This document shows positions 13,301 through 43,782 of a stretch of DNA of 64,000 nt, piece by piece; the stretch's first letter is position 1, and the number at the start of each line of letters is the position of its first letter. This DNA is from a virus. The notes under the pieces were generated by a model that saw only the letters and a program-made list of their open reading frames with translations, had not been told where the DNA came from and ran no database searches. The DNA lies in IMG/VR virus record IMGVR_UViG_3300043449_002204, positions 1 to 64,000 of that record, one strand, 5' to 3'. Position numbers and translations under genes: made by a program.

Positions 13301-16300
13301 CCGTAAGTTGTCCTACAATTAATTTAGATAATTGTGTCATATTTAACGCACAAGATGGTGGTATTGGCGTAACCGATACTTTATATTCTTATGATTTTTC
13401 AACAAACACATCTATACCAATACCATTAATTAACGGTCAAAATATATTTAACGCAGTTGCAAATACATCACAAAAACTATGGATTTATGGTTCTTATCCA
13501 GGAGTTGGTACTACTATTAGAGAATGGGATATCACTTTATCACCATTTACCTCAACATTCAATAGGTCTATTATAGGTGTTTCATCTATATATGGTAACA
13601 GTACTAATGGATTAGTCGCAATTGATAACTTTACATTACTAAGTGTTACCGGCTCAACCGCCGGTTCTCAGAGTGTTGTATCTTTGAATATTTCAAACTA
13701 CACAACAAATATACCAACATATACTAAGCTTTTTGATTTACCGTCAAATAGAACTATTCATAGTGATTTAATATTTACTCAAACTAATAAGATTATTATT
13801 ACCACAACTCAATCAACCCCAACTTCGGAAAGATATATAACACAATATGATTTATTTGGTAACATTGAGGTTGATGTTCTAATACCTCAGGGTACTTTAT
13901 CAAGTAATCCACAAGGGTATTCAATGTTTGTGGTTTCTAACAATTTATACTTAGTGGTTTCAAATGGTGCTCCGGCATTTATCAGACAAATTAATTTAAA
14001 CTCACCATATAATATCACGCCAAGTGGTCAATTACCAGCTATTTCATTTGATATTTCACAATCACCAGAATGTATAACAGTTGAATTTATCCCGATTACA
14101 AAAACTCCAACTCCTACGTCGACTCAAACCCCAACTCCGACGCAAACCATAACCATAACACCAACATCAGGCAATACATTAACTCAAACACCAACATCTA
14201 CCCCAACAAATACTATTACACAAACTCCAACAACAACTAAAACCCCAACAAATACCACAACGGTTACTCCTACCGTAACACCAACTATAACTGTAACTCC
14301 AACTAATACAAATACCCCAACTGTTACAGTAACTCAAACTTCACAAACTTGTTTTTGTTATACTTTTTATAATATATCACAGGCCACAACAGGTTTAGTT
14401 AATTATACAGGTTGTAACTTAACAACAGGAACTCTTACCATTCCGGCCCAAAGTTTCGAAAGACTATGTGTTCTTGAAAATGCATTTTCTGCAAATACCG
14501 CAATACGAGAATACGTTGATTCAGTTTGTTCCGCATCAATTTGTCCTAATTTAGAACTACAACAATGTAGCATTTTAACAGTACCAACGGGAGGAAATTA
14601 TTCCGGAGTATGGACTGAAATAAATAAAGAAGGAGACTTTGTTGAATACTACCCTTCTTCTGGTAGAACAACCGTAGTTTATGGAATGGCCAAAACAAAT
14701 TCTTTAGTTTGGGTTTATGGTACTTTTGGTGGATTAGTTAGATTAAGAGAATGGACAATAACTGAAAATCCTTACTCGTCTGTGGTTAATAGGACGTTAG
14801 TCATAACCACATTATGGGCAGATACCGAAAATGGTTTAGCGGCAGTAAATAATAATGCATTAATATCCACAACCGGAACTTCGACAAATTCAACAGTCGT
14901 TCAAGTAGTTGTTACACCGTCAATAACAATAACCAGATTATTTGATTTGGAACCTAATGTTAGAATCTCAGGAGATATATTATTTACCACAACAGGCAAA
15001 ATAATAATTGCAGTATTAAATACAACCAATAATCAAAGGTTTATTCGTCAATATGACGTTACAGGTTATTTAGAATCTTCAACTTCCGACGTTTCATCAT
15101 TATTACCTAATCCTATTTTATTGTTTGTATCATCAGGAAGATTATACGCCACAAGACAAAATATCACTAATAGTGTAATATATGAAGTTTCTTTAGATTC
15201 TCCTTTTGGTCTTACATTGTCAACAGGTAATTTGTTCAATAGTTTTAATGATTTAGCACAAAGTCCAAGTTGTATAAGTATTGAAATGGTTCCTTTAACA
15301 AGAACTCCAACTCCTACAATATCATTGACACCAACAATTACTCCTACATCACAAACTCCGACTGCAACACCTACAAGAACTGCAACACCTACAAGAACTT
15401 CAACTATAACTCCAACAAGAAGTGTTACACCTACAAGAACTCCAACTATAACTCCAACAAGAAGTGTCACACCTACTAGAACTCCAACTAGAACAGTTAC
15501 ACCTACTAGAACTCCAACTATAACTATAACAAGAAGTGTCACACCTACTAGAACTCCAACTAGAACAGTTACTCCAACTAGAACAGTTACTCCAACTAGA
15601 ACAACAACAATTACTCCTACCATATCATTTACTCCAAGTATGACTTTAACACCTAGTCCTACTTCATTAGGTGTTGCCGCACTACCGATGATGATTGGTA
15701 CTTCTAGCGATAGTTTAACCACATATTTATTAAGATATGATGTGTCAACAAACACTTTTGAAACATTAATTTCGGCAGGTGTAGGGATATTACCATCTAG
15801 AGACATCGCTTGTACAACAACTAAATTCTGGTTATCAAACACAGGTACCGGTAATATAATTAAAGAATATAGTTATACCGCATCTCCATTTAATTACGTT
15901 GAATTAAGGACGATAAATGTTCCGGTTACAATAGGGGAAGGTATGTCAGTTAGAACTTCAAATGGTGTTGATTATTTAATAGTTAACACAGGTACCACGA
16001 CACCGACTATCGTAGAATTGAACATAACCTCATCTACCGCCACTGCAACTGCTAAATTTGATTTACCGTCCGATAGGACTATTTTAGTGGATATGATGTA
16101 TACCAATACAGATAAATTAATAATTTCAAACTACTCAGGCGCAAATTCTAATGATGGTTTTTTAACACAATATAATTATACCACAGGGAACAAAGAAATA
16201 GATTTATTTTATAATACGTCATTAGGTTATGACTCACCAAGGTCTTATTTTGTTTCAGGTGGCACAATTTTTAGTATCAACAATTCAATTACACCAATTA

Positions 16301-16422
16301 TTTATCAATGGAATTCTAATAGTAATATATTCCCATCAAGTACTTTTAATTTCGCTCCTCAATCAGTATTTATACGTGGTGCGGCCCAACCTCAACAAGT
16401 TATTGACACCAATTTCACATAA
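4321..16422 (+). CDS. 4033-residue modular Thr/Pro-linker protein with eight propeller-like modules
   Basis: An independent start at 4321 opens a complete N-terminal domain (to about 4510). Thr/Pro linkers then alternate with three kinds of module. Propeller-like modules of about 240 residues lie at about 4897-5593, 6283-6960, 9061-9783, 10036-10755, 12011-12733, 13330-14085, 14564-15289 and 15670-16419. They share YxYD, DIA, LW, a 'EW.ITLSPF' motif, 'GDxxxTxTxK', 'ITQY' and a closing SQ...C. Small Cys modules starting CxC(F/Y) lie at 5713-5910, 7201-7404, 8098-8306, 11794-11992, 13108-13313 and 14347-14545. CC-type modules lie at 7630-7875 and 11026-11557. No signal peptide or membrane segment is visible. 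A very long virion fibre or surface decoration is the likeliest role; this is inference. It could also be a decoy or a secreted adhesin. The family is not one I can name. Confidence 0.85.
7081..7170 (+). repeat. 30-bp in-frame tandem repeat (three copies)
   Basis: Copies at 7081-7110, 7111-7140 and 7141-7170 encode the [10 protein letters not shown]-type decapeptide. The last two copies are identical at the DNA level, which points to recent duplication. Confidence 0.85.
7471..7550 (+). repeat. 30-bp in-frame tandem repeat (two and two-thirds copies)
   Basis: Units at 7471-7500 and 7501-7530 are identical and a partial third follows to 7550. They encode [10 protein letters not shown]-type decapeptides in the linker before a CC-type Cys module. 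Confidence 0.85.
10921..11010 (+). repeat. 30-bp in-frame tandem repeat (three copies)
   Basis: Units at 10921-10950, 10951-10980 and 10981-11010 encode [10 protein letters not shown]-type decapeptides. The first differs from the others by one base. A related duplication ([12 protein letters not shown] type) lies immediately upstream at about 10860-10920. Confidence 0.85.
11701..11776 (+). repeat. 30-bp in-frame tandem repeat
   Basis: Units at 11701-11730 and 11731-11760 and a partial unit to 11776 encode [10 protein letters not shown]-type decapeptides. It is the only linker seen here with regularly spaced glycine. Confidence 0.8.
12961..13020 (+). repeat. 30-bp in-frame tandem repeat (two identical copies)
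   Basis: Positions 12961-12990 and 12991-13020 are identical and encode a [10 protein letters not shown]-type decapeptide. Arg replaces the Glu found in linkers further upstream. Confidence 0.85.
15361..15620 (+). repeat. Arg-rich Thr/Pro linker (TPTRT repeats)
   Basis: This linker is built from TPTRT, SVTPTR and TRTV units, giving about one Arg every five or six residues and no acidic residue. It separates the seventh and eighth propeller-like modules. The repeated use of the same codons shows tandem expansion of short units. Confidence 0.8.
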
Positions 16423-19595: not shown

Positions 19596-22001
19596 TTAAA
19601 AATCAAATTTTACCAAAAATTGCTGAATACCCTGCCTTAATACAGGTGACTGCATTTTCGATATAATCATAAGATTTTTTTCATTATCGTAAAGACCAAT
19701 GTCGGTTATGTAGCTTTGTCCTCCCCTCCATGTCGGGTTTGATGGTGATAAAAATTCAGAGAAACTTAAATTTATCTTGTATCTCATTTCATAAATTGTT
19801 GCCTGAATATCAGTTTCTATATTACCATAAAAATAATATTCATCACCAAAATTAAGTGTCTGACCTGAAGGATTTAAACTTACCATAGGAATATAATCAT
19901 TAAGATTATAGTATTCTGCGGCGTCGTATAATTCTTGAGTAACAACAAATGTTGATGCAGTAATTCCACTTTGAACAATACATCCGTCAACTATTGTATT
20001 ACTTATTTGTGATGTAAAATCAATAATTTTCCATTCGTCGGGTACAGGCCTTTGTCCTGTTTCAACTAATTGACATATCACTTGAATATTTTCGGCAAAA
20101 AATCCTGACGTAATCGCACATCCTCCTCCACAACCAACACAAGATAAGCAAGGAAACTCGGGTCCAAATCTAACACTAACATTTTGGGGTATAGGATTAC
20201 CACAATCTAAATTAGGGCCTTGTTGTTTTGTGTAATAATTACAATGTAATGAATTTGTAAATCCATTTTCGTTAGAAAATCTGTAAGTAATATACATTGT
20301 TTGATTACTACCTGATAAAATTCCTGTTGTCGACGCATTATCATCACCACAGGTGTTTGGTGTTACTAATGAAACCCTTGGAGCTGGTAATGTCCAGTTT
20401 CTATTTGACTTATAGGACATTGCCGCAATTATCTCATCATCATCAATAATTATAAGTTTGTGGTCAGGAAATACTTTACCTACTCTACTTGGATATCCAT
20501 CATCATTTGCATTAGTATCCCATAAATGATAGTATCTCATACCAGGGTCATTCATGTCCTCATTTTTCTTTGAGGTCATATATTGTACTTGGAAAAGATT
20601 TAAGGTATCAAACCCTGGTGGGTCAACGTAAAATGTTTGTCCTTGACAACAGTTAGGATTTTTGTGCCACATTAACCAAGGTAAATGTACTTTGAAGTTT
20701 CTTCCTTGTCCTGTTGTATCTGCGGGTTGGTCTGGGTCATATGGTTCCATTGCAAATTTTTCACCATAAAACAAATCTATAGTTTGATTTGTATAGTGAA
20801 TGATGGCAATCGCCTTTTGTTCCTCAGGTGTTACAGTAATTCTATCATCAAATGAATTATTATAAAATACCAAACTACTATCGGTCTGTCCACTATCTGA
20901 CATATAACCAAAAAATTCTTTAGAACCAATATAACTTCTAGAATTAAAGTATGAATAACCTTGATATAAAGATGGTATTAGTCCAGCCGGGTCTTCCGAC
21001 CAAGGAATATTCATATTCCAAATCTTAACATCAAATTGGTCATAACCACAAATAGATTCAAAATTTATAACATCATCATTCCAATGTGCTTGTGGTGTAT
21101 AACTGTCATAAATCTCGGTCATATTTGGTGGGTAAATCAATAATCTCGCATAACAAGAACTATTAAATACCGTAAAATCAGGCGCCGGTCTATCTAAAAC
21201 TATCTCATCACCACAAACATCAACAATTCTATATGTAAGAATGTGATAACAACTAGACATCGTCATAGAACAATTAGGTACAGGTTCAGGTGGGCATAAA
21301 GGTACAGGAGTTGGTTCAGGACAAGGTGGGTTTGATGGTGTAGGTGTTGGAGTTACTAAACATGGGAATGGGTCTGGTACTTGTGCGGATGCCGATGGTG
21401 ATGGTGGTGGAGTTGCCGATGGTGGATATTGAATAGGAAAACATTCACAATTAGAAAATCCCGCTCCGTCATAATATATTGTCACCAAATCACCAGCTTG
21501 CGGTAGTCTTGTTGTATTTGCATTACATCCTCTATACGATATGGTAATTCTATCCGTACCATTTACGGTTGACATATTGGTAACATAATTAGAGTTAACA
21601 ACATATTGTCCATTAGTTAATACTGACCAAGATGTAGGTAATGATGATGTATTAGCATCAAAGAAACCCCTCATTACCGCAGTGTTAAACACAGGACTTA
21701 CAATCGAATCCATATATGGTATACCGTAAGTATTACCATTATTACCATCAACAAAATAAGGATACTTTACATATTGCTTATTAGATTGAGGGACACCTGA
21801 ATTGTTTTGGTCATTAAAACCCGCCTCTAAAATATTTGTATCAAACTGATTGTAAAAATCCGCCAAACCATTATATGAAACTTCACTATCACCTATTTGG
21901 AAATAAGCAATATTAAATTTACCTTGTGATAGTTTTTTTCGTCCAGCGTCGGTTAGTTTTGTATTAATTAATCCTGCCGTATTTTTGAGTATATATCCCA
22001 T
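19596..22001 (-). CDS. Baseplate/tail-fibre type structural protein
   Basis: This 801-residue protein begins MGYILKNTAGLINTKLTDAG, followed by RKKLSQGKFNIAYFQIGDSE. This pattern resembles N-terminal attachment domains of phage tail-collar fibre proteins, where an 'LT..G...LA...I.....G' motif is typical. A Pro/Ser/Thr/Cys-rich hinge lies near residues 195-245. The C-terminus (YITDIGLYDNEKNLMIISKM, then a QFLVKFDF end) matches a pattern I associate with T4-like virion proteins ('TIGLYND..LLAVAKLS..' and a '..KxDF' end). The centre carries many Cys residues (for example PCLSCVGCGGGCAI). It starts 26 nt after the preceding operon gene, with a TATTTATA element in the gap. The role is inferred as a fibre or fibre-anchoring protein. 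Confidence 0.7.
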   Translation of the reverse strand: MGYILKNTAGLINTKLTDAGRKKLSQGKFNIAYFQIGDSEVSYNGLADFYNQFDTNILEAGFNDQNNSGVPQSNKQYVKYPYFVDGNNGNTYGIPYMDSIVSPVFNTAVMRGFFDANTSSLPTSWSVLTNGQYVVNSNYVTNMSTVNGTDRITISYRGCNANTTRLPQAGDLVTIYYDGAGFSNCECFPIQYPPSATPPPSPSASAQVPDPFPCLVTPTPTPSNPPCPEPTPVPLCPPEPVPNCSMTMSSCYHILTYRIVDVCGDEIVLDRPAPDFTVFNSSCYARLLIYPPNMTEIYDSYTPQAHWNDDVINFESICGYDQFDVKIWNMNIPWSEDPAGLIPSLYQGYSYFNSRSYIGSKEFFGYMSDSGQTDSSLVFYNNSFDDRITVTPEEQKAIAIIHYTNQTIDLFYGEKFAMEPYDPDQPADTTGQGRNFKVHLPWLMWHKNPNCCQGQTFYVDPPGFDTLNLFQVQYMTSKKNEDMNDPGMRYYHLWDTNANDDGYPSRVGKVFPDHKLIIIDDDEIIAAMSYKSNRNWTLPAPRVSLVTPNTCGDDNASTTGILSGSNQTMYITYRFSNENGFTNSLHCNYYTKQQGPNLDCGNPIPQNVSVRFGPEFPCLSCVGCGGGCAITSGFFAENIQVICQLVETGQRPVPDEWKIIDFTSQISNTIVDGCIVQSGITASTFVVTQELYDAAEYYNLNDYIPMVSLNPSGQTLNFGDEYYFYGNIETDIQATIYEMRYKINLSFSEFLSPSNPTWRGGQSYITDIGLYDNEKNLMIISKMQSPVLRQGIQQFLVKFDF

Positions 22002-22005
22002 TGTC

Positions 22006-22013
22006 TATAAATA
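22006..22013 (-). promoter_or_regulatory. TATTTATA element 4 nt before the 801-residue gene
   Basis: On the coding strand the sequence reads TATTTATAGACAATG. It matches the octamer found at 43787 with the same 4-nt spacing to ATG. Promoter or translation-initiation element; function inferred from recurrence only. Confidence 0.35.
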
Positions 22014-22027
22014 TAGAAAAACTTTTT

Positions 22028-24997
22028 TTATACTGAAATATTGGACACACCACAATTTGTGCATCCACTTATTGTCAAATTGGTTAATATAAAGTCATCA
22101 ATTGCGTCTCCAACATAACACTTATCAATGCTATTTTTAGTTATAGTAGTACTAGTATTTAATGAAAGTGTGTCTCTATTAGTGTAACTAATCGATGACC
22201 ACGTTTCGGTTCTACCAGTCGTATATATTATTTTTTGTTGACAACCCGAATTTGTATTTAATGTAGTTCCTGTTTCAGACACTACAGTATTTGCACTGTA
22301 ATTAACAGAATTTTTCTTTAATAGTGTATTGTTATTAAATGTTGCAGCAGTTGTTGCCGGTGATGATTTAAAGTTACTAGTATGAATTAAATCAAATAAT
22401 ATTACAACCCCATCAGGTAAACTTGGTGTCACGTTTATTGTTGAAGTAAATTGTCTTGTTGTTACATTTTGTCCACTTCTAGGTGTGGTACTTGTTGTTT
22501 GAAGTGACACTTGGTAGATGGTTGGTCTTGCTGGTGCAATTAAAACTACTGATTGTGTATAAGTGCTTCCTGAAGAATCTTTTATTACCGTATTATACGT
22601 ACCAGGTCCTAACTTACTAAATAATGGTATACTTTTAAAAGTTAAACCCCCATCTATTGAATATTGATAAGGTGGGAATCCTCCCGAAGCCCTTAATGTA
22701 ATGTTCCCGTTATTAATAATTCCGTTATTTTCTGCGGTTGTAGTGGCACTTCTTGTTGATGAACCTGTTACATTAGAAACACAACTATCCCCTAAAATAT
22801 CCAAACAATTATTTGTTATGGTTCCACCTCCACTTGAACCTTGTAATGATTGACATGGTTCTTCGTAAACACCACCACTAACAGTTGTTCCAACCAGTCT
22901 ACAAATACATGCTCTTGAATTTATTCCAGTACCTCCCGGTACCGCAATTTGGGCCGGATTACCATCACAATCGGTATAAAACGCAGTACCAGGATAAGAT
23001 GATATTGTTCTCACCGCAATACATTCACATTGATTGGGTTCCGCCTCGATTCGTTCTGAATTATCCACAGGAGCATCTGTAAAGGGCACATTACCCGTTG
23101 AGGGATTATTAACAACAACTCCTCCAACTACCGGTTCACTTGTACAACAATTACCCAATAATTGTATAAAAGCAGTTCCCTCTGTTAAGGTAGGAGCGGT
23201 TTCGGAACATATTTCTAAAGAATTACCTCTGAAGTTTGTCCATCCGTAAGCCGCGGCTCTAATAGTTTCTAATAATCCAGTATCACAATTTATTATATTT
23301 AAAAACGTTAATGGTACCGTATCTTGGAAATTTGTTAAACTCCAATTAAAACATCCGCACCCAGCTGCGGGTCCTGAACTTGTTCCAGTATTAGTATTTC
23401 CACCCAAATTTGCATTTGCAGTTGTTGTAGGAGTACAATTACCGTTATATACAACTATATAATCACCAGGTTGTGAGCCAGGTTGTTGCCATCCTGAAAT
23501 AGGTGGAACTGCCGGATTTGTATTAATTACATTATAATAATAAGGATTAGTAGTAAAATTAACAGTCCATCTATTGTAAGTTGAATTCCAAGATAAAATA
23601 TATGACCCATTAGATGATTGCCATGATGGTTGACCATTTACCATTCCACTATAAAATAATGTTACAGTATTTTGTCTGACCTCATTACCTTCTTTACTTT
23701 GGGAATATGTTAGACATAAATTACCGTAAGAGGGGCATTCTCCCAAATTACCAGTAACATTACCATCCAAAATTTGTGTATTTGTAAATACCCAATCATC
23801 TATTGGTGGTATTGCAATATTGTAATTTTCAATTTTTCCTCCCACAACCGGTCCTCCAATTACCCACCCATTTGGTAAAATTGAAGTGCTCCAATTTATA
23901 TTGTAAGCACCTCCAACATATTGAGGCATACTATTAATAATAACTCCAGAATAAGTGAAATATTGTTGTATTGTTTGAGTTGGAGTACCAACTGACATAG
24001 TTAAACAAAATGATGGGTAATTTTCATCGGGAGTTGGTGTTATTGTCGGTGTAACAGTTGGTGTATTTGTTATTCTTGTTTCTGTAGGTATTGGAGTTGG
24101 AGCAGTTAATGTACATTGGGTATATGCCGTAAAATCACCATAAAAATCTACTACAGTAGAGCTATAAGTTCCAACCCCTAAGTTAGTTAAAAACATACCG
24201 TTGCCTCCCGTACTCCATGTTATTGAATATGGGGGTGTTCCTCCTGTAATTATCAAAGATAGAGTACCATCAGGAATTGTAGTTAAAGTAGGATTAGTAC
24301 CCGTACACTGTACTCCCATCGGGAATATCACGATTGGGTCACATTCATTTCTTTTTAAGATATTATCACCACATCTTGTATCTGAACTATAGTAAATGGT
24401 TGGTGTTGGAGTTGGAGTTACATAACATCCTTTAGTTGATGCAGTACATGATGTACAGTTTTGATAATTTTCATAGGTATATGGTATATCTTGATAGAGT
24501 ATGATACCACTAGGTAATCCTACTGAACTTACAACTGTAGTACAGGCAGAAACAGAACCAATACCAACATAATAAATTCCACCTAACTGAAAAATATTTG
24601 ATTCAGTTAAAATTCCAAAATAATCATCTTCGGGTCTATCTTGTTGTGGACAACAGTATTTAAAATATACATATTCTTGTTGTACAGGACATGGGTGAGC
24701 ATCTAAACATCCAGAAGTCGTAGGATAAATACCCGATATTGGGTTCAAACTAAAACTTGTGTACACCGGATATACCGGGGTCGTACCTGAGGATATAAAT
24801 TTAAAACATCCTGATATTTCTGATGGAGTTCCATTGCAGTTTGTAACACAATTTGTTATTTGAGTAAAATAAAAAGAATAACCTATAGAACTAGGTGCGA
24901 GACTTATGTTACCTTGAGCACCTGAAACTCCAATATAATTAGAATTAACACATTCTGCTGAAAAATTATAATATATTGTTGGTGTGGGTATTGCCAT
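22028..24997 (-). CDS. Modular Cys-rich tail protein with SprB-like repeats and Thr/Pro linkers
   Basis: This 989-residue protein is a minus-strand relative, by modules, of the plus-strand giants. Near residues 105-195 it has the CC-type Cys module (YVYFKYCCPQ ... GGIYYVGIG ... CTSCTASTKGC). Two CxC modules start CGCFNWSLTN and CECIAVRTIS. Two SprB-like repeats carry GGTPPYSITWS ... LGVGTY and GGFPPYQYSIDGG ... LGPGTYNTVIKDSSGS. Short Thr/Pro linkers ([23 protein letters not shown]) join them. It is 12 nt from the SprB-repeat gene and 26 nt from the 801-residue gene in one operon. A distal adhesin or fibre role is inferred; no enzymatic motif is visible. SprB repeats suggest a Bacteroidota host. 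Confidence 0.75.
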   Translation of the reverse strand: MAIPTPTIYYNFSAECVNSNYIGVSGAQGNISLAPSSIGYSFYFTQITNCVTNCNGTPSEISGCFKFISSGTTPVYPVYTSFSLNPISGIYPTTSGCLDAHPCPVQQEYVYFKYCCPQQDRPEDDYFGILTESNIFQLGGIYYVGIGSVSACTTVVSSVGLPSGIILYQDIPYTYENYQNCTSCTASTKGCYVTPTPTPTIYYSSDTRCGDNILKRNECDPIVIFPMGVQCTGTNPTLTTIPDGTLSLIITGGTPPYSITWSTGGNGMFLTNLGVGTYSSTVVDFYGDFTAYTQCTLTAPTPIPTETRITNTPTVTPTITPTPDENYPSFCLTMSVGTPTQTIQQYFTYSGVIINSMPQYVGGAYNINWSTSILPNGWVIGGPVVGGKIENYNIAIPPIDDWVFTNTQILDGNVTGNLGECPSYGNLCLTYSQSKEGNEVRQNTVTLFYSGMVNGQPSWQSSNGSYILSWNSTYNRWTVNFTTNPYYYNVINTNPAVPPISGWQQPGSQPGDYIVVYNGNCTPTTTANANLGGNTNTGTSSGPAAGCGCFNWSLTNFQDTVPLTFLNIINCDTGLLETIRAAAYGWTNFRGNSLEICSETAPTLTEGTAFIQLLGNCCTSEPVVGGVVVNNPSTGNVPFTDAPVDNSERIEAEPNQCECIAVRTISSYPGTAFYTDCDGNPAQIAVPGGTGINSRACICRLVGTTVSGGVYEEPCQSLQGSSGGGTITNNCLDILGDSCVSNVTGSSTRSATTTAENNGIINNGNITLRASGGFPPYQYSIDGGLTFKSIPLFSKLGPGTYNTVIKDSSGSTYTQSVVLIAPARPTIYQVSLQTTSTTPRSGQNVTTRQFTSTINVTPSLPDGVVILFDLIHTSNFKSSPATTAATFNNNTLLKKNSVNYSANTVVSETGTTLNTNSGCQQKIIYTTGRTETWSSISYTNRDTLSLNTSTTITKNSIDKCYVGDAIDDFILTNLTISGCTNCGVSNISV

Positions 24998-25009: not shown

Positions 25010-28000
25010 TTATATTTGATTTATACAACCCATGTTTAAATCCCCTCCTCCACCAACTGGTGTTGCAACATATATAATGATATCAACATACGTTGGTGAT
25101 GATAATGTTTTTGTGAATTGTAATTGGATATCAGTACTACATGCCTTAGCAGCTGGTGAAGGATAATTAGGTACAACACCTAATTGATTACCAACTGAAC
25201 CAAAAAGTCTTTGCGGGGTTAAAGGAGCCACATCGTTAGCGGTGAAGTTTAATTCTATCAATCCATTAGTAGTCCAGTTATTATTAGGGAACGCTGTTGT
25301 TGCATTTCCGGTTCCAGGTGTATAAATAAAACTATTCCACTGAGTAAATCCAATTATTTGATTAATTGATGCGTCTAAAGCCGCTTGTGTTTCATCACCA
25401 GTTAAGAATAATGAATCTGCAACTATATTATTGTTCCAAACTATTTGATATCTAGTGTTAATGCCTCCATTTATTGTTAATAATGCGTTACCAGTTCCAG
25501 AACCTAATTCTACTCTTTGTGTGAAATACCCTCCTACTTCAGGTGTAGAAATGTTTACATAATTAGTACTGTCATCAATTCCGCATGGTAAGTTTGGCAG
25601 TTCAAATACAGGTTCAAAACAAGTATTAACTTGATATAAACTTAAAACTATTGATGCACCTCCTATTGAGCCAAACGGAATAACACCAAACGGTGATGAT
25701 AAGGTAATCTGATAAATATTAGCCGAAGAATCAACCAAATATACTAAACCACTAAACACTTCGGGGTTGAAGAATAATCCTGATGGGGTACCAACAACAA
25801 CAGGAGTTAAATTAAAAATATAGAAGGTCGTATAATCAACCGAATTTACTAACTTTAAATAATATTCAACGAATGGGGCATTCAAAGTATTTTGAATTAA
25901 AACATACAATGTTCCGTTATTGTCATTAACAATACTTCCAATAACCTCATCAAATAAGCTCAAATAAGACTTATTTGTTATCACCGGTGTTAGTGTTGAA
26001 ATGTCAATTTCAACAAACCTATGTGGTGTTACTTCAGTATTTGTTGTTATAAGTACGTTACCTGTTTTGACTCCAATCGCGGCTCCGATTGCAAAATTTA
26101 AATTATAAACTCTATTAAATACTGCGGTAAATGGGTTCAAAGTTATACTCCATTCTCTAATTGTTGTTGACCCTGCCGATGTTGTATAACCCCACATTTT
26201 ATCATTAGTAAATGCAATACTTAAAGAATCAAAATTATAACCATCAACACTAAGTACCGTACTAGTATCGGATGAATAAACGTAATTATACATCTGCAGG
26301 GATGAATCTATGTAAATCATATCACAACTATTAAATGATGGTCCAGGTATAGGTTCAATCTTACAAACACAAGAAATATCATAAGATATTTTAAAATCAA
26401 CTCTAATTTCTGCGTTACTTAATGATAATGCTTGGTCATTACAACTACTCTGAACTGTTATACTATTTTCGGTTGGGTTAATTATAACATTACCAATAAC
26501 TGAAAATGATTCTAACATGGATTCTATGGTGTCAAACCAAAGATTATCCGAAGGGTAATTACCCAAACTATTTGTTGTATAAAATTCTTGTTCTACCTCA
26601 TTACCATCTACCGTAACTACTGCAGTAAATATAGCTTCATTTAAAATACAGTTAGTCTCACCTGATGTTAAATCATAAAAACCCTCCAAAAACATTTGTT
26701 GAGGTTTTTTAAGTATTGTTAAACCTTCTGAAATAAATTCAGATTGACAATAGTTATAAATCTCATATCCTCCCTTATTATTATATCCTAATAATGTTAT
26801 TTCTCTACCTAATTGACATCCGTTTGCATCAGTTACTAAAACGGTATAAGTTCCGGCAGATAAATTAGTTAAATTAGTACCTGTTTGGCCATTAACATTA
26901 CTACTCCACATAATTTCATAAGGAGCAGGCCCTTCAGTAATATAAAGTTGTATAGTACCATTATTAAAACCTGTTAAATTTGTTCCAACTAATGAAAAAT
27001 CAACACTGTCAGTCGCATTAACAGTCACCGTTTGTATTTGAGAACAAGATTGAGCATCTGTAACCGTAACTTGATAAATCCCTGCAAATAAATTATTAAA
27101 CGTAACAGCAGTTTGAGTTGTGTTACTAATCGTTGGTTGTCCTGTAACTTGGTATGTAACAGGGTATGTGGCCCCGCTAGAGATTCTTAATGAGATTGAC
27201 CCATTACTTCCTTGACAGGTTGTTCCTGTTGTTGAAGTGGTTAATGTATATTTTTCAATATTATTAATCGTATATGTATTTGTAAAAATACAAGGTCCAT
27301 TGGCTATTGTTAGGGTATAGGTACCGGCGGATAACCCTTGGAATTGATTTGAAAAACCGTTAACCGTCTGTTGTATTGAGTTACCTGAAGGGTATGTTAG
27401 AGTATAAACAAATGGGGGTGAACCGCCTAATAAAGTTATCGGACTTAAAGCCCCTGATGAATTATTACAGGTAGAATTTACAACACCAACATTAAGAATT
27501 GTAAAACCATTAGGAGGTGTTAAAGCCTGTGATACTGTTGCAGTACATAATGCCGCATCGGTTACTGTTATTATATAATTATTTGAAGATAGGCCAGTTA
27601 GTGTAAATGTTTCACTAAATGTAATAAGGCTTTGTCCATTACTTCCTTGGTAGTAGTATGGTGCGGTTCCTCCAGTAACCACTACCGTAATTTGTCCATC
27701 GGCACCAAAGCAACTTGGCGTTACAGTAATAACTTCCGCAAATCCAACCTGTGGTACAGTTCCAACTATAACATTTTTAGATACTTGACATCCTGTTGAA
27801 TCTATAACCGTAACTGAGTAAATTCCACTAGTTAATCCAGATATTGATGACTGCAAACTCCCTGTATTCCAAGAATAACTATACGGTGCATAACCTGTTA
27901 ATCCTGTTATAAATACCTTACCAGCTCCATTTGTACACGTAGAATCATCAACAACATAGAATCCATAATCAAATTGTGTTGAGGGTTTAATAATACAACT

Positions 28001-28507
28001 TTCAGACCTACCCGTACACCCTCCGCCATCATTTACCGTAACATAATACGTCCCCGCAGATAAGTTATTAAACACAAAATCATCCTGAGTTGACGAACCC
28101 GAATTTATTAATCCTCTTGTAGTTTCATATAAGAAAAAATCAGTACTCTGTAAATTATTATCAGTTCTAGCGGTTAACGAACCGTTCGCCAAACCACATG
28201 TTGTGTTTATATGACTAGGTAATGACACACAAACTCCATCAGATATGATAACATTAACAACACTCTGTAAAGGTGTGGCACAACTATCAAAAAGAATAAA
28301 TGTATATGTATTAGGTGTTAAATTTGTTCTTGTAAACGCAGTGACACCGGCACCCAACGCAACCGGAATTGGGTCGTCAAATGGTGATAAAAATTGATAA
28401 TAATATGGTGGGGTGGTTCCGCTAATATTAATAGTAAAAGCACCCAATCCACTATTGGTACAATCACCACTTATCGATAAACCATATCTTAAAGAACAAA
28501 CTGCCAT
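25010..28507 (-). CDS. SprB-repeat adhesin-like tail protein with a propeller-like module
   Basis: Roughly the first 575 of 1165 residues are seven tandem SprB-like repeats of 70-85 residues. Each has a 'C....G.i...i.GG..PY.Y.W' first half and an 'L.aGtYtVtVtD..GC' second half, clearest in GYAPYSYSWNTG ... TSGIYSVTVIDSTGC. SprB repeats are known from the gliding-motility adhesin of Flavobacterium. Next comes a Cys module (about 26340-26760) shared with the end of the upstream 1000-residue protein. Then follows one copy of the propeller-like module otherwise found eight times in the plus-strand 4033-residue protein (about 25600-26336, with IREWSITLNPFTAVFNR). A unique C-terminal domain ends the protein. 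It overlaps the upstream gene by one base (TAATG), suggesting coupled translation. The likely role is adhesion at the tail tip or fibres; this is inferred. Confidence 0.8.
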   Translation of the reverse strand: MAVCSLRYGLSISGDCTNSGLGAFTINISGTTPPYYYQFLSPFDDPIPVALGAGVTAFTRTNLTPNTYTFILFDSCATPLQSVVNVIISDGVCVSLPSHINTTCGLANGSLTARTDNNLQSTDFFLYETTRGLINSGSSTQDDFVFNNLSAGTYYVTVNDGGGCTGRSESCIIKPSTQFDYGFYVVDDSTCTNGAGKVFITGLTGYAPYSYSWNTGSLQSSISGLTSGIYSVTVIDSTGCQVSKNVIVGTVPQVGFAEVITVTPSCFGADGQITVVVTGGTAPYYYQGSNGQSLITFSETFTLTGLSSNNYIITVTDAALCTATVSQALTPPNGFTILNVGVVNSTCNNSSGALSPITLLGGSPPFVYTLTYPSGNSIQQTVNGFSNQFQGLSAGTYTLTIANGPCIFTNTYTINNIEKYTLTTSTTGTTCQGSNGSISLRISSGATYPVTYQVTGQPTISNTTQTAVTFNNLFAGIYQVTVTDAQSCSQIQTVTVNATDSVDFSLVGTNLTGFNNGTIQLYITEGPAPYEIMWSSNVNGQTGTNLTNLSAGTYTVLVTDANGCQLGREITLLGYNNKGGYEIYNYCQSEFISEGLTILKKPQQMFLEGFYDLTSGETNCILNEAIFTAVVTVDGNEVEQEFYTTNSLGNYPSDNLWFDTIESMLESFSVIGNVIINPTENSITVQSSCNDQALSLSNAEIRVDFKISYDISCVCKIEPIPGPSFNSCDMIYIDSSLQMYNYVYSSDTSTVLSVDGYNFDSLSIAFTNDKMWGYTTSAGSTTIREWSITLNPFTAVFNRVYNLNFAIGAAIGVKTGNVLITTNTEVTPHRFVEIDISTLTPVITNKSYLSLFDEVIGSIVNDNNGTLYVLIQNTLNAPFVEYYLKLVNSVDYTTFYIFNLTPVVVGTPSGLFFNPEVFSGLVYLVDSSANIYQITLSSPFGVIPFGSIGGASIVLSLYQVNTCFEPVFELPNLPCGIDDSTNYVNISTPEVGGYFTQRVELGSGTGNALLTINGGINTRYQIVWNNNIVADSLFLTGDETQAALDASINQIIGFTQWNSFIYTPGTGNATTAFPNNNWTTNGLIELNFTANDVAPLTPQRLFGSVGNQLGVVPNYPSPAAKACSTDIQLQFTKTLSSPTYVDIIIYVATPVGGGGDLNMGCINQI

Positions 28508-31500
28508 TAACTACAACTTATAGTAAAATCAATACCAACGTTTATTTCAAATATTATCCCACTACTATTTAAGGAACATACATTGTTTATTACAACAACT
28601 TTATCGTCATCTGTTAAATAGTAACCATATCCATAATTAGATAAAGATAACATAGCTTCATTTATTGCATTGTACCATTCAGAGTTAGATGGATAGCTTA
28701 AACCATCTAAATTATAACCAACACCAGTGTAAAATGGATATTGGATTAATAAAAGTCCGTTTAATCTAATATCCACATACCAAGTAGAATTTATACTATC
28801 CGAAATACAAGTATTAAAACTTAAATTATTATCACTTAAATACTTATTAACCAAATTTCCTAAAATAGCCGCAAAACTTTGTATTGTCGATGTTGGACTC
28901 CAAGGATATAAATTACAGGTGGCTGTTTGAACAGGGCAATCATCACTAAATATATTATCAGTTACCGTACAAGGTTTACAAGGTACCGCAACTAATTGAC
29001 AACCAGCTTGTCGTCTCCAAACATATTTCTGTCTGTGGAAAATTGAGTTTTCATATTTGACGCCAGTGTTCCACAATGTAGTTGCTGGTATCATTTGCTC
29101 AACTAATCTAATCCAATAATCACCCATACCCTGAACATACTCCATCATACTTTGATAGTTGTAATTATTGTTAGATATTCCAGCGATTTCTTCGGATTGT
29201 AGATATCTCCAGTAAATTGATTCTAAGGTTGGGTAGGACCCAAAGTATTGTCTGTTTCTAACATTGATTGTATTTTGCCAAAATGTTTGAGCAAACTCAA
29301 AAAATGTTTTTTGTCTAGGTTGTGGATTAATCTCAGTCCAGTCAACTCCATCTCTACTTGGATACATTGAATAAGGGTCCGGATTACATCTTGTGGGTTG
29401 TACCCAATTTAATCCTTGGTTTGGTATAGGATAATTATACTGACGAGACATCTCCCAGACATCGTATAATAAACCTTGACCCGGATTCATAAATAAATCA
29501 ATATTCTTGGCATTAAGTACTAATTTTTCATTGTCCGCATAATAACGGGCATTAAAATTACCATCCAAGTTTTCTCTTAATCCAATCTCCGTATCTGTCC
29601 AACTTTTGTTATTATCAGGTGTTTGAGTTAATTTGAATCCCATATCCATGTACGGGAATTTTCTATACCTATCCAAATAAATTTGACCGTATGTGTAAGG
29701 TATCAAACTAGTTTGATAATTTGGATTACTACCTGTAAAAACACTTGTATTTAAATTAGGTTGAGCCGGTGACCTATGTTTTGGTGTTGATTCAAACCAA
29801 CCACTACCTATTTGGAAGAAATAATTTTCGGTGTCGTCAGGTGAAACAGGATACCCTTCATCGTCAACTGGGTAGGCTCCAGCACCAATATTAACATCAT
29901 CAATTATAAAATTAGTTGTAAACCCTGTGTATTGTACACCAAATATGGAAAATATATCAGTTGGGTCTAATACCGCCGATGATTCTAAATACGTACCACC
30001 TGATATATTAGCAAACTTTGTATTAAACTGACTTAACTTAATTTTTTGGTCTGCAACATACACATATTCATTAAAGTCAACCAAAGCATCAGGCGCTCCA
30101 ATTAATCTCATTAATACCTCAATCGCCTTTCTAGTCCCTTTAGATTTGAATAAAAAGGCGGCATTTAAACATAAATTCCTATAGTATTGATAATTTAATT
30201 GGTCCGGTGTTTGTTGTGTTGCAACACCCGTAAAGTTTGATTGGTCTGAATTTTTTTGTCCGAAAACAGAATCTAAAAATCCTGATTCTGTTATTGGTGA
30301 TATATCTGTATTAAATCCTAGTGTTTGGGCTAAATTCTTTAAAAGTTGTGATGGTATATCGTTTCCGATGTTATAGTTAACGGAATTCATAAAACCAAGT
30401 GCCGTAATATATTTCTTGGTTTCATCAAAACTCCTACCGTATATCTGTAAAATTTTTTCAACTTTGTGGCTATCCGTGTCAAAATCTTTAAATGCACCAG
30501 TAACCAAAAATCTACTTACCAAATTAGTTAGATACCCATCAAAATTACTACTCGCTTCGCCAATAGTTTCTATGTAGTTTGTGAAGTTAGGAGTTCTAAT
30601 ATCTAAATTCCATTTACCATCTAAAGTCCATGTTATATTCTGTGTTGCAACATAAAATCTTCCGTCATTTGCTTCGAGCGGTACTTTAAAGGCTGCGGTA
30701 TAAATAGGACTAATGTTTCTATTTAATAAAAAGTTTTCTACCTCATCTAAATCTTCGTTAAATACTTTTTCAACTTGTTGGTCATTTGGTCGAATAATTA
30801 AAGAACTAAATGTTTCGGTTAAACCAGTAAATGGTTCTCCCTCTACATAAACTTTTAATACACCTGTGGATAAACTATCTGTAGGTATTATTCTTTTAAC
30901 GTTATACCCAACTCCGTTAACATATAGTGAATAATTCGCATATTCAACTGTCATATTTCTCAACTGTGAAACCTGCATTTCTTTTAATTGCAAATTTCTG
31001 GTAGCGTTTACGGTAAAATCAACCCCAAATGGGTTTCTCATTTTAGGAATTGATATTTCAAAACTTGTTTGATTATCAATTGGGTAATAAACTATATTAT
31101 ATGCGGTCGCACTATCCGTATAATCTAACCCTAATTTAGTAACTTCAATAGCCGCAGGAAACTTACTGATAATTGTTGTAATCGATGTTGACATTCTTTT
31201 TGACATCGAACCATACTGAACAAAATTAGTAATCTGAGATAAATCAAAATTTGGATATACTTTAAAATTATTTTCAAAAATTAATTTTGATTGGTCTACC
31301 GAACCTACACCTAACGAATCTAAACTTATCGGGTCTGAAAAAGTACCAGTATTAAAAGTTCTATTAACCTTTTCAACAACACCTGTGGTAAATTCAAAGT
31401 TTCCTTGCGTAAGTCCTCCACCCGAGGTTAATTGAAACCCTACGAGATTGTCGGAAAAACTACCTTGAGCGGATGCCTGTGGTGGACAAGTAAACTTTTT

Positions 31501-31509
31501 TATCGCCAT
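28507..31509 (-). CDS. Large baseplate/tail structural protein of unknown detailed function
   Basis: This 1000-residue protein has no Thr/Pro linkers. The body is rich in Asn, Tyr and Phe, as is usual for phage baseplate proteins, and includes an alpha-helical stretch (KGTRKAIEVLMRLIGAPDALVDF). The C-terminal 130 residues (about 28510-28900) form a Cys-containing module that recurs in the next protein. It shares a one-base TAATG overlap with both neighbours, so the three genes are probably translationally coupled. The position downstream of the gp25/gp6-like genes suggests a baseplate wedge or fibre-connector role. I do not recognise a named family. Confidence 0.65.
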   Translation of the reverse strand: MAIKKFTCPPQASAQGSFSDNLVGFQLTSGGGLTQGNFEFTTGVVEKVNRTFNTGTFSDPISLDSLGVGSVDQSKLIFENNFKVYPNFDLSQITNFVQYGSMSKRMSTSITTIISKFPAAIEVTKLGLDYTDSATAYNIVYYPIDNQTSFEISIPKMRNPFGVDFTVNATRNLQLKEMQVSQLRNMTVEYANYSLYVNGVGYNVKRIIPTDSLSTGVLKVYVEGEPFTGLTETFSSLIIRPNDQQVEKVFNEDLDEVENFLLNRNISPIYTAAFKVPLEANDGRFYVATQNITWTLDGKWNLDIRTPNFTNYIETIGEASSNFDGYLTNLVSRFLVTGAFKDFDTDSHKVEKILQIYGRSFDETKKYITALGFMNSVNYNIGNDIPSQLLKNLAQTLGFNTDISPITESGFLDSVFGQKNSDQSNFTGVATQQTPDQLNYQYYRNLCLNAAFLFKSKGTRKAIEVLMRLIGAPDALVDFNEYVYVADQKIKLSQFNTKFANISGGTYLESSAVLDPTDIFSIFGVQYTGFTTNFIIDDVNIGAGAYPVDDEGYPVSPDDTENYFFQIGSGWFESTPKHRSPAQPNLNTSVFTGSNPNYQTSLIPYTYGQIYLDRYRKFPYMDMGFKLTQTPDNNKSWTDTEIGLRENLDGNFNARYYADNEKLVLNAKNIDLFMNPGQGLLYDVWEMSRQYNYPIPNQGLNWVQPTRCNPDPYSMYPSRDGVDWTEINPQPRQKTFFEFAQTFWQNTINVRNRQYFGSYPTLESIYWRYLQSEEIAGISNNNYNYQSMMEYVQGMGDYWIRLVEQMIPATTLWNTGVKYENSIFHRQKYVWRRQAGCQLVAVPCKPCTVTDNIFSDDCPVQTATCNLYPWSPTSTIQSFAAILGNLVNKYLSDNNLSFNTCISDSINSTWYVDIRLNGLLLIQYPFYTGVGYNLDGLSYPSNSEWYNAINEAMLSLSNYGYGYYLTDDDKVVVINNVCSLNSSGIIFEINVGIDFTISCS

Positions 31510-41478: not shown

Positions 41479-43317
41479 TCACGAAAAATTGACTGATTTA
41501 AAGTTCTTAACTCTAACTGTAATATCTTTACCAGGAAATCTAACCTGATATGTTTGATTTGGTTCGGCAAAAATTGTATCATCAATTAACTCAATTTCAC
41601 GAGTTTCAGCGTTAGAATATCTCTGTGAAGTTTGAGATGATGAATATTGACCACCGACCAAATTATAAAATGTAATATTTGCCAAGGTAATAACACCGTT
41701 TTCATTTTGTATTTGTCTACGTAACTCAGAGATATACACATTCTCACCCATTTGTCGGTTTAATGGACTGAAAAAATCTGTGACAATATTAATAACTTGC
41801 GAAATCAAAGCTCCTTGGTTTTGACTACTATCTAAAACAACTTCAATAACTGTAGATAAATCAATAACATTTGCTGACATTATTGATATATAGTCATTTA
41901 ACATTCTATAATTTGATAGATAATTTGCAACATTACTTTTCAATGTATTAGATACAACCTCTGTTAGTTTTCCTGTTTCATCGTAAGCCAACATTTGTAT
42001 CTTAATCTTATTATTTTCTTCCGTGATTGCAACTTTTGCCGGCGCTCCGAATTGTGATGGCATCGTTCTAATAATTGAATCGTAATCATTCACAGTTACC
42101 GCTCTATTTTGAGCGGCGAAATTAAATGACACCAGGTTTCTAACTTCTTCAGTTGTTGGTATGTTTGCCCCTCCAATTGCCGCAGTAACATTGTTACACT
42201 TTAGTGAATTAATAACACTAGTATTAATAGAAGATGAAGGTCCATTTACATAAAAGGATATCGTACCTATTTGTGTTATAACATTAACACCTACATTACT
42301 ACTTAAACCACCACCCACTCTGTATTGTACAAATAAAGTAGTGTTCGCTTTTAAAGTACTACCCAAAGCAAAGTTATTTGAATACTTATATAAATCTAAT
42401 TTATACCCGTTTCTCGCAAACTCTTTTAATTGTTCGTCGGCAGATTGACTACCTCCACCAAAAGTTATCTTCATATAACCTTCAGGTGTAAATTCAGTTA
42501 TAAACTTATTTGATGTTGTTATATATTTTCCTACTTTAATACCTGGCGAATCAGAGGTTTTAGTTGGGTCTTCAACAAATACCCTATCTTGTGCAAGTGC
42601 CTGAACTTCATACCATCTGTTATCTAATCCTAAAAATTCTTGGGTTGATGGTACATTTGCATATTGAGTACCGTCCTTTAATAAAACACTTGTAACACCT
42701 AGTACATTTTTTTCAGGTAAGAATAATTCAAAAAATGGTTTTACATCATTAGGAGTTATTACCCTTTTGAATACTTTTGTAACCCCGTTAACTACAGTCT
42801 CCCTCTTAACTATTGTGTAATTTATTAAGATATTATTTGAATCAAAATTAGGTATCACTAATCTATTTGGAGCACCTTCGGCATTAACTGCGGAAGAAAA
42901 ATCAATATCGTATACTGTCTCAAAAATTTGTCCTGCTCCGTTAACCTGAGAACCTCGTCTTAAAATACCACAATATCTTAAATCCTCCTTATCACCAAAC
43001 GCAGGAACTGTAATTGCCAAATCGACTAATGCTACCGAAGGTCTTTGACCTGGAACTTTTAATCCGTAAGTTCTCGCAATATTATATATTGATGACCTTT
43101 GTTGTGCATATTGTAATACTGTTTCTTGGATACTCCTATCAATGTTGAATTGTAGGTTATCAGTAACCGCGGCATTTAAATCTAATAACACCGAGAAAAC
43201 CGAAGCGTCATTAACATTGTCAATTAAATCAGGATAATACGTTCTTGTAAAATTTACTAGTTCAGCCCTTATCGCTTCAAAATCTCGGGTGGTATATGAT
43301 ATCTTTTTGTTTGCCAT
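41479..43317 (-). CDS. Baseplate wedge protein, T4 gp6-like (baseplate J family)
   Basis: This 612-residue protein opens ISYTTRDFEAIRAELVNFTR, then YYPD and NDASVFSVLLDLNAAVTDNLQF, the N-terminal signature of gp6/J-like wedge subunits. The family shares a 'D+..i...l..y.......' start and a 'L.d..A.....q..id....E..L..A' helix. T4 gp6 forms the inner iris of the baseplate wedge and controls the change that triggers sheath contraction. The length is close to T4 gp6 (about 660 residues). It lies 6 nt after the gp25-like gene, the same partnership seen in T4-like phages. Assignment is by motif and gene order. Confidence 0.85.
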   Translation of the reverse strand: MANKKISYTTRDFEAIRAELVNFTRTYYPDLIDNVNDASVFSVLLDLNAAVTDNLQFNIDRSIQETVLQYAQQRSSIYNIARTYGLKVPGQRPSVALVDLAITVPAFGDKEDLRYCGILRRGSQVNGAGQIFETVYDIDFSSAVNAEGAPNRLVIPNFDSNNILINYTIVKRETVVNGVTKVFKRVITPNDVKPFFELFLPEKNVLGVTSVLLKDGTQYANVPSTQEFLGLDNRWYEVQALAQDRVFVEDPTKTSDSPGIKVGKYITTSNKFITEFTPEGYMKITFGGGSQSADEQLKEFARNGYKLDLYKYSNNFALGSTLKANTTLFVQYRVGGGLSSNVGVNVITQIGTISFYVNGPSSSINTSVINSLKCNNVTAAIGGANIPTTEEVRNLVSFNFAAQNRAVTVNDYDSIIRTMPSQFGAPAKVAITEENNKIKIQMLAYDETGKLTEVVSNTLKSNVANYLSNYRMLNDYISIMSANVIDLSTVIEVVLDSSQNQGALISQVINIVTDFFSPLNRQMGENVYISELRRQIQNENGVITLANITFYNLVGGQYSSSQTSQRYSNAETREIELIDDTIFAEPNQTYQVRFPGKDITVRVKNFKSVNFS

Positions 43318-43323
43318 GTATTA

Positions 43324-43782
43324 TTAAATATTAATTATAACAAAATCACTACTATTAAAAACACTATCTGTAATTACATAGTCGATTCTTACAACTGCCG
43401 TATGTTCCATTTGTCCAATACCAGGTACTCTATAAACTTTTTCACCATCGTCATTAACATACTCACCTTTACCTTCCTCACCTTCAGATGCCGCTTTAAC
43501 AGAAATACTTGTTAAAGTTAGGTTAGGTAGATACTGTTGTACAGACTCTCGTATTTCCGCTTCTATTTCAGAAAAAGTTGGTCCATCTAATGGTTCGAAA
43601 ATAAATTCATATAACCTTGTTCCAAAATCAGGTAAAAAATACCTTGAGCCCTTTCTAGTTAATAAAAGATGAATTAAATCTGTTCTTATTTCTTCATCCG
43701 CAGTTTGAGATAATGACAAATATTTACCCGTTTTAGAATCAACGAATGGGAAATTTATACCGTATGTATTACCTAATGCCAT
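43324..43782 (-). CDS. Baseplate wedge protein, T4 gp25-like (GPW/gp25 family)
   Basis: This 152-residue protein shows the gp25 family core: DEEIRTDLIHLLLTRKGSRY, FLPDFGTRLYEFIFEPLD and a following helix ending in a '..YLPNLTLTSISV' strand. gp25 is the wedge component that contacts the sheath initiator ring. The family's conserved 'G.R...PdfG..l...lf.p' motif is fully present. An insertion of charged residues (SEGEEGKGEYVNDDGEKVY) lies in the C-terminal half. It is followed directly by the gp6-like gene and preceded by a TATTTATA element abutting the stop of the upstream gene. Confidence 0.9.
   Translation of the reverse strand: MALGNTYGINFPFVDSKTGKYLSLSQTADEEIRTDLIHLLLTRKGSRYFLPDFGTRLYEFIFEPLDGPTFSEIEAEIRESVQQYLPNLTLTSISVKAASEGEEGKGEYVNDDGEKVYRVPGIGQMEHTAVVRIDYVITDSVFNSSDFVIINI

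What the first reader, a model, noticed from the sequence alone, without database searches (positions are those of the whole stretch)
26780..28507. Seven tandem SprB-type repeats in a phage tail gene
SprB repeats are known from a cell-surface adhesin used in gliding by Flavobacterium. Seven units in a tail protein, and two more in the next gene, suggest that the phage took up host adhesin sequence. Possible uses are mimicry, attachment to the moving host surface, or binding the same polysaccharides. It also points to a gliding Bacteroidota host.
Basis: partly seen in the sequence, partly recalled or inferred. Interest (0 to 1): 0.65.

Follow-up and report, generated by a model that had tools for sequence, protein, structure and literature searches.

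The report
Seven-plus-two SprB-type phage tail repeats
A large family of aquatic tailed viruses, very probably infecting Bacteroidota, carries in its tail-gene block one protein built on exactly seven SprB-type (immunoglobulin-like) domains followed by a second with two; the count has stayed fixed while the rest of the protein changed, so it looks like an old, built-in part of the tail rather than a piece recently taken from the host.

Summary
Observation confirmed. Gene 25010-28507(-), 1165 aa, holds seven ~80-residue units at 26780-28489, and the next gene (22028-24997) holds two. Both score as Pfam SprB repeats (E 4e-11, 5e-12); all nine units beat 2000 shuffles in leave-one-out profiles. 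'Tail gene' is supported by context (T4-like baseplate block), not by proteomics. A Bacteroidota host is well supported: closest bacterial units are nearly all Bacteroidota, Shine-Dalgarno sites are absent, NrdB is 64% identical to Tenacibaculum phages. Recent capture from the host is not supported: the orthologous gene has exactly seven units in 86 of 88 distinct complete relatives, partner genes carry two units in 84 of 86 loci, and each position forms its own clade, so the array was fixed before this phage lineage diversified. Behind the array come a conserved ~140-aa domain and a variable C-terminal tail. Best reading: a fixed-length Ig-like arm on the baseplate carrying a variable outer end. 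Mimicry, polysaccharide binding and a gliding-specific role are untested. Closest precedent: crAssphage's stable eight-BACON tail array. A new variant of a known kind.

The parts
28232..28489 (-). SprB-type unit 1 (aa 7-92)
   Evidence: leave-one-out profile 19.5 bits vs best shuffle 11.3; model strands
27986..28231 (-). SprB-type unit 2 (aa 93-174)
   Evidence: 27.1 bits vs 10.9
27758..27985 (-). SprB-type unit 3 (aa 175-250), most conserved position
   Evidence: 39.1 bits vs 13.3; 56% mean identity between phages
27512..27757 (-). SprB-type unit 4 (aa 251-332), best Pfam SprB stretch
   Evidence: (262-292), 38.8 bits, 38.6 bits over cut-off
27260..27511 (-). SprB-type unit 5 (aa 333-416)
   Evidence: 27.4 bits vs 10.6
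27014..27259 (-). SprB-type unit 6 (aa 417-498)
   Evidence: 48.7 bits vs 9.7
26780..27013 (-). SprB-type unit 7 (aa 499-576)
   Evidence: 48.8 bits vs 19.2
26360..26779 (-). Conserved ~140-aa domain after the array (aa 577-716), called 'cap' here
   Evidence: column occupancy 0.98 in 81 orthologs; mostly confidently modelled alpha/beta domain; related to the C-terminus of the 1000-aa neighbour (hmmsearch 1.7e-5; hhalign 95.7%, E 9.5e-9)
25010..26359 (-). Variable C-terminal tail (aa 717-1165); part resembles beta-propeller blades
   Evidence: occupancy 0.24-0.44; tail less identical than array in 275 of 280 ortholog pairs; aa ~752-850 aligns to propeller blades (Z ~9); mostly low pLDDT
24086..24394 (-). 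SprB-type unit in the second gene (22028-24997, 989 aa)
   Evidence: 33.1 bits vs 14.2; partner genes hold two units in 84 of 86 relatives
22523..22822 (-). Second SprB-type unit in the same second gene
   Evidence: 34.4 bits vs 10.5; 31.4 bits Pfam, over cut-off
28507..31509 (-). Upstream partner gene, 1000 aa, conserved neighbour; shares one base with the array gene
   Evidence: 53-87% identical in relatives and next to the array; weakly collinear with the 1265-aa protein of Flavobacterium phage immuto
19596..22001 (-). Downstream partner gene, 801 aa, closing the cassette
   Evidence: conserved in relatives; ends related to immuto 219/337/357-aa proteins
41479..43782 (-). gp6-like (Baseplate_J) and gp25-like baseplate wedge genes of the same block
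   Evidence: PF04865 2.8e-6 and PF04965 1.3e-12; phrog_219 and phrog_261

Best explanation
The gene encodes a structural tail protein of a T4-like phage of Bacteroidota. Seven tandem Ig-like SprB-type domains form a fixed-length arm, a conserved ~140-aa domain follows, and a C-terminal tail that differs between phages forms the outer end. A second protein with two more units belongs to the same cassette. Proposed mechanism: the array acts as a spacer of set length between the baseplate and the variable part, which contacts the host. Shown here: domain identity, fixed count of seven and two, position orthology, linkage to baseplate genes, variable C-terminus. Inferred: that it is in the virion, that it sits on the baseplate, which end points outward, and that the tail is the receptor-binding part.
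For: Exactly seven units in 86 of 88 distinct complete orthologs, with the array ending near residue 566-593 while total length runs 713-1199 aa, once 1326. Of the two exceptions, L122 has seven once its non-ATG start is allowed for. A separate scan by unit gave 72 of 73 frames with seven, the other seven plus one remote. Partner genes carrying two units (2, or 1+1) follow in 84 of 86 loci. Each position is its own clade (support 0.88-0.997; one bacterial unit inside u7, one u6 outside), and the nearest unit from phages below 45% array identity is the same position in 647 of 665 cases. Conservation falls from the 1000-aa neighbour (78%) to array (66%), cap (60%) and tail (48%), as expected from a baseplate-to-tip gradient. 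The array is modelled as beta-sandwiches at pLDDT mostly 80-92; best solved matches are tandem Ig/FN3-like chains. The gene lies in a baseplate block and in the interval that precedes annotated tail fibre and spike genes in Flavobacterium phage immuto.
Against: No virion proteomics or micrograph. The 1000-aa neighbour has no recognisable fold or family, so placement on the baseplate rests on gene order. The link to immuto is weak (13.6 bits). The C-terminal tail is poorly modelled, and about a third of orthologs (32 of 95) have under 20 aa after the cap, so a receptor-binding tip is not universal in this gene. The array itself, not the tail, might bind the host.
Confidence: 0.6

Rival explanations
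1. The SprB-type units themselves are the binding element: they attach the tail to surface polysaccharide or to the gliding adhesin layer of the host, with seven copies giving avidity.
For: The closest bacterial units are in Bacteroidota proteins with long arrays; SprB repeats co-occur with GldJ-type genes; F. columnare phage resistance goes with loss of gliding, and its phage receptors are thought likely to be part of the gliding machinery (PMC7345892). PMC6949934 proposes host-surface binding for phage BACON arrays.
Against: No binding data. A strictly fixed count and position-specific sequences fit a spacer better than an avidity array, whose number should drift; bacterial frames carry anything from 1 to 36 units (some cut by locus ends).
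Confidence: 0.2
2. Recent capture of a host adhesin segment by this phage.
For: Units u3 and u7 score 52-54 bits against Bacteroidota units, more than against other units of the same phage (but 889 bacterial units were compared with 6).
Against: Same seven positions in all relatives down to 34% array identity, each its own clade.
Confidence: 0.04
3. Ig-like decoration or whisker protein of the head or neck rather than of the baseplate.
For: Weak profile hits to T5-type decoration proteins and a neck-whisker protein and to phrog_3945, Hoc-like.
Against: The gene sits in a baseplate gene order, shares one base with the 1000-aa neighbour and shares that neighbour's C-terminal domain; the hits may reflect only a common Ig fold.
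Confidence: 0.12

Closest known systems
BACON-domain tandem arrays in tail-region proteins of crAss-like phages (PMC6949934)
   Same: Ig-like domain family known from Bacteroidota surface proteins, in a stable tandem array (eight) in the tail region, each position its own clade, poorly conserved C-terminus.
   Different: Different domain family (SprB, PF13573), T4-like contractile-tail phages instead of crAss-like ones, seven units plus a two-unit partner, distinct flanking genes.
SprB adhesin of Flavobacterium johnsoniae
   Same: Shares the SprB repeat domain (PF13573).
   Different: The phage protein is 1165 aa, has no C-terminal T9SS sorting domain, sits in a phage baseplate block and has a fixed repeat number.
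UniProt A0A6J5LD72, 'SprB repeat' protein of an uncultured Caudovirales phage
   Same: 714 aa, 34% identical across 730 aligned columns; evidently the short form of the same protein.
   Different: Automatic annotation only; no paper discussing it was found.
1670-aa protein of the 642-kb uncultured huge phage LR756502
   Same: About 15 SprB-type units in tandem; [quoted passage not shown]
   Different: Different count; its units resemble each other and bacterial units more than they resemble the seven positions; no cap domain.
Aureispira grappling hook protein GhpA (9flp, 9fly, 9flw)
   Same: Best Foldseek matches: long tandem Ig-like chains from a Bacteroidota bacterium.
   Different: 13-19% identity, not found by sequence profile; fold resemblance only.

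Membership tests
SprB repeat domain (PF13573) | Profile match over Pfam's gathering score | tested here: met
   42.8 and 45.7 bits against 28; met by 7 of 8 orthologs tested, the eighth at 23.3 bits
SprB repeat domain (PF13573) | Tandem arrangement in a long protein | tested here: met
   seven and two units
SprB gliding adhesin | C-terminal T9SS sorting domain | tested here: not met
   no C-terminal match in Pfam or NCBIfam; Por_Secre_tail hits lie inside units 3 and 7
SprB gliding adhesin | Export signal and cell-surface location | not testable with these tools
   the protein begins almost directly with unit 1; no signal-peptide predictor was run
Phage tail-associated Ig-like tandem array (as crAss BACON) | Encoded within a tail gene block | tested here: met
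   gp25/gp6 upstream; sheath in the record
Phage tail-associated Ig-like tandem array (as crAss BACON) | Stable count and position-specific clades | tested here: met
Phage tail-associated Ig-like tandem array (as crAss BACON) | Presence in the virion tail | not testable with these tools
   needs proteomics or cryo-EM
T4-like contractile-tail phage | gp18-like sheath, gp25 and gp6-like baseplate proteins | tested here: met

The most novel reading that the evidence does not exclude
The fixed seven-plus-two SprB-type arm evolved to engage the moving adhesin layer of gliding Bacteroidota (the adhesin itself or its shared ligand), so that the phage rides the host's surface conveyor before injecting its DNA.
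Probability: 0.07. Interest if true: 0.75.

Novelty: new variant of a known kind. Interest (0 to 1): 0.42.

Why it matters
It gives a widespread, uncultured group of large phages a likely host phylum and a defined candidate adsorption component. It is a second case, in other phages and with another domain family, of a Bacteroidota surface Ig-like domain kept as a constant-number tail array, which suggests that such arrays serve as length-set structural arms. The seven-plus-two signature is also a usable marker for finding this lineage.

Tried and rejected
Single-protein scan of viral contigs with the 1165-aa protein found nothing; the neighbours found the family instead. The first genome scan with unit 3 fell on phage-specific stretches and found no bacterial or prophage relative; the unit alignment A1 was too diverse to search with. 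Apparent exceptions L133, L128 and L122 came from my ATG-only ORF calling; stop-codon recoding there was considered and rejected because the frame is open. Designed armadillo proteins are chance. Por_Secre_tail, Y_Y_Y and Hoc-like hits are cross-hits on Ig-like strands. Fold search of the 1000-aa neighbour gave nothing usable. Hosts could not be checked by CRISPR spacers here.

Full report
What is there. On the minus strand, gene 25010-28507 encodes 1165 aa and gene 22028-24997 encodes 989 aa. Residues 7-576 of the first are seven units of 76-86 aa; their DNA runs 26780-28489, which is the finding's interval. The second gene holds two units at 24086-24394 and 22523-22822. Pfam SprB (PF13573) matches both proteins over its cut-off, and within the 77.7-kb virus record it matches only these two genes. 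Pfam alone flags only some units, so each unit was tested against a profile made from the other eight: all nine score 19.5-48.8 bits and beat every one of 2000 shuffles.

Context. The record has a T4-like contractile tail: gp25-like and gp6-like baseplate wedge proteins, a gp18-like sheath, and UvsX-like, DnaB-type helicase, SSB and ribonucleotide reductase genes. The array gene shares one base with the upstream 1000-aa gene. In Flavobacterium phage immuto the same block runs gp25, gp6, then a 1265-aa protein weakly like the 1000-aa gene, 219-357-aa proteins like the ends of the 801-aa gene, then annotated tail fibre and spike genes; no SprB-type unit was found in that stretch of immuto. A tail location is therefore likely but is inferred from gene order.

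Comparison across relatives. Searches with the 1000-aa and 801-aa neighbours brought in 160 loci on IMG/VR contigs of up to 322 kb. They give 98 distinct orthologs of the array gene, 88 complete: 86 have exactly seven units, one was scored as six and one as eight. The six is an artefact of a non-ATG start; L122, L128 and L133 all have seven in an open frame. A third scan with the unit itself gave 72 frames with seven and one with seven plus a remote eighth; its contigs overlap the earlier ones, so it is a check of method more than new data. In 84 of 86 loci the genes between the array and the 801-aa gene carry two more units, in one protein or split over two.

Evolution of the array. Across phages, units at the same position are 41-56% identical and at different positions 20-37%; among phages whose arrays are less than 45% identical the nearest unit is the same position in 647 of 665 cases. 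In a tree with 211 bacterial units, positions 1-5 are clean clades, 6 loses one member and 7 includes one bacterial unit, with supports 0.88-0.997; the phage units as a whole do not separate from the bacterial ones, and the deep branches are unresolved. So the array was complete before this family diversified. Whether its units came from bacteria once, several times, or went the other way cannot be told from 76 columns.

Anatomy. AlphaFold2 models the array confidently as beta-sandwiches, then a ~140-aa alpha/beta domain; beyond residue 717 confidence is mostly poor. The ~140-aa domain is in nearly all orthologs (occupancy 0.98), whereas the tail columns are filled in 24-44%, and the domain is related to the C-terminus of the 1000-aa neighbour. 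In 280 ortholog pairs mean identity falls in the order neighbour 78%, array 66%, cap 60%, tail 48%, and the tail is less identical than the array in 275. Part of the tail resembles beta-propeller blades, and one ortholog carries a phosphatidylethanolamine-binding-protein domain there. The best solved folds for the array are Aureispira GhpA and other tandem Ig/FN3 chains, which show a common fold, not a function.

Host. Of the 80 best bacterial loci found with the phage units, 77 bear Bacteroidota names by my count of the titles; the others are one Lysobacterales MAG and two labelled only 'bacterium'. Shine-Dalgarno sites precede 1 of 27 window genes and 3 of 71 ORFs in relatives, against 0 of 39 in a Flavobacterium phage, 15 of 19 in Aeromonas phage Aeh1 and 9 of 27 in Microcystis phage Mel-JY01. 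NrdB is 61-65% identical to Tenacibaculum phages and to two huge phages, with the next phages near 29%; [quoted passage not shown] Against this, the gp6 and helicase searches also rank a Microcystis phage high, at 25-29% identity. A gliding host is plausible: 23 of 23 sampled genomes with SprB repeats also match GldJ at E <= 1e-20, against 5 of 95 without (Fisher 6e-20), but only 12 of the 23 pass GldJ's curated cut-off. That is a property of bacteria with such repeats, not a demonstration about this phage's host.

Mechanism and rivals. I favour a fixed-length arm with a variable outer end (0.6). Binding by the units themselves (0.2), a head or neck decoration (0.12) and recent host capture (0.04) are less likely. 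No step of adsorption has been shown here.

Novelty. Tail-linked, position-stable Ig-like arrays are known from crAss-like phages with BACON domains (PMC6949934), and an ortholog is already labelled 'SprB repeat' in UniProt. No paper that discusses SprB repeats in phages was found in the open library, which lacks most subscription journals. The strict seven-plus-two architecture in a large phage family is, to my knowledge, not described.

Noticed in passing
window 113-4306 (+): 1397-aa protein with a C-terminal ConA-like/Laminin_G_3 domain (PF13385, 4.7e-13) and a phrog_15511 match; possibly another adhesion protein.
   Followed up: no
window 4321-16422 (+): A single 4033-aa open reading frame, not searched.
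   Followed up: no
L008:8219-11785 (-) (own record, beyond the window): Tail sheath of 1188 aa, much longer than T4 gp18; most known sheaths match only its last ~350 residues.
   Followed up: no
window 19596-24997 (-) and L133:5004-6809: PT-rich linkers (TPTPTNT-like) in the neighbouring genes and in C-terminal tails of some orthologs.
   Followed up: no
L071:13114-16668: Ortholog whose C-terminal tail carries a phosphatidylethanolamine-binding protein domain (PF01161, 5.7e-10), suggesting domain exchange at the tail.
   Followed up: no
L007:18684-23696 (LR756502): Another huge phage with about 15 SprB-type units, many of them alike, in one 1670-aa protein.
   Followed up: partly
L166:4194-6605: The one ortholog scored with eight units; the first hit is weak (10.8 bits) and overlaps the second, so the count there is uncertain.
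   Followed up: partly
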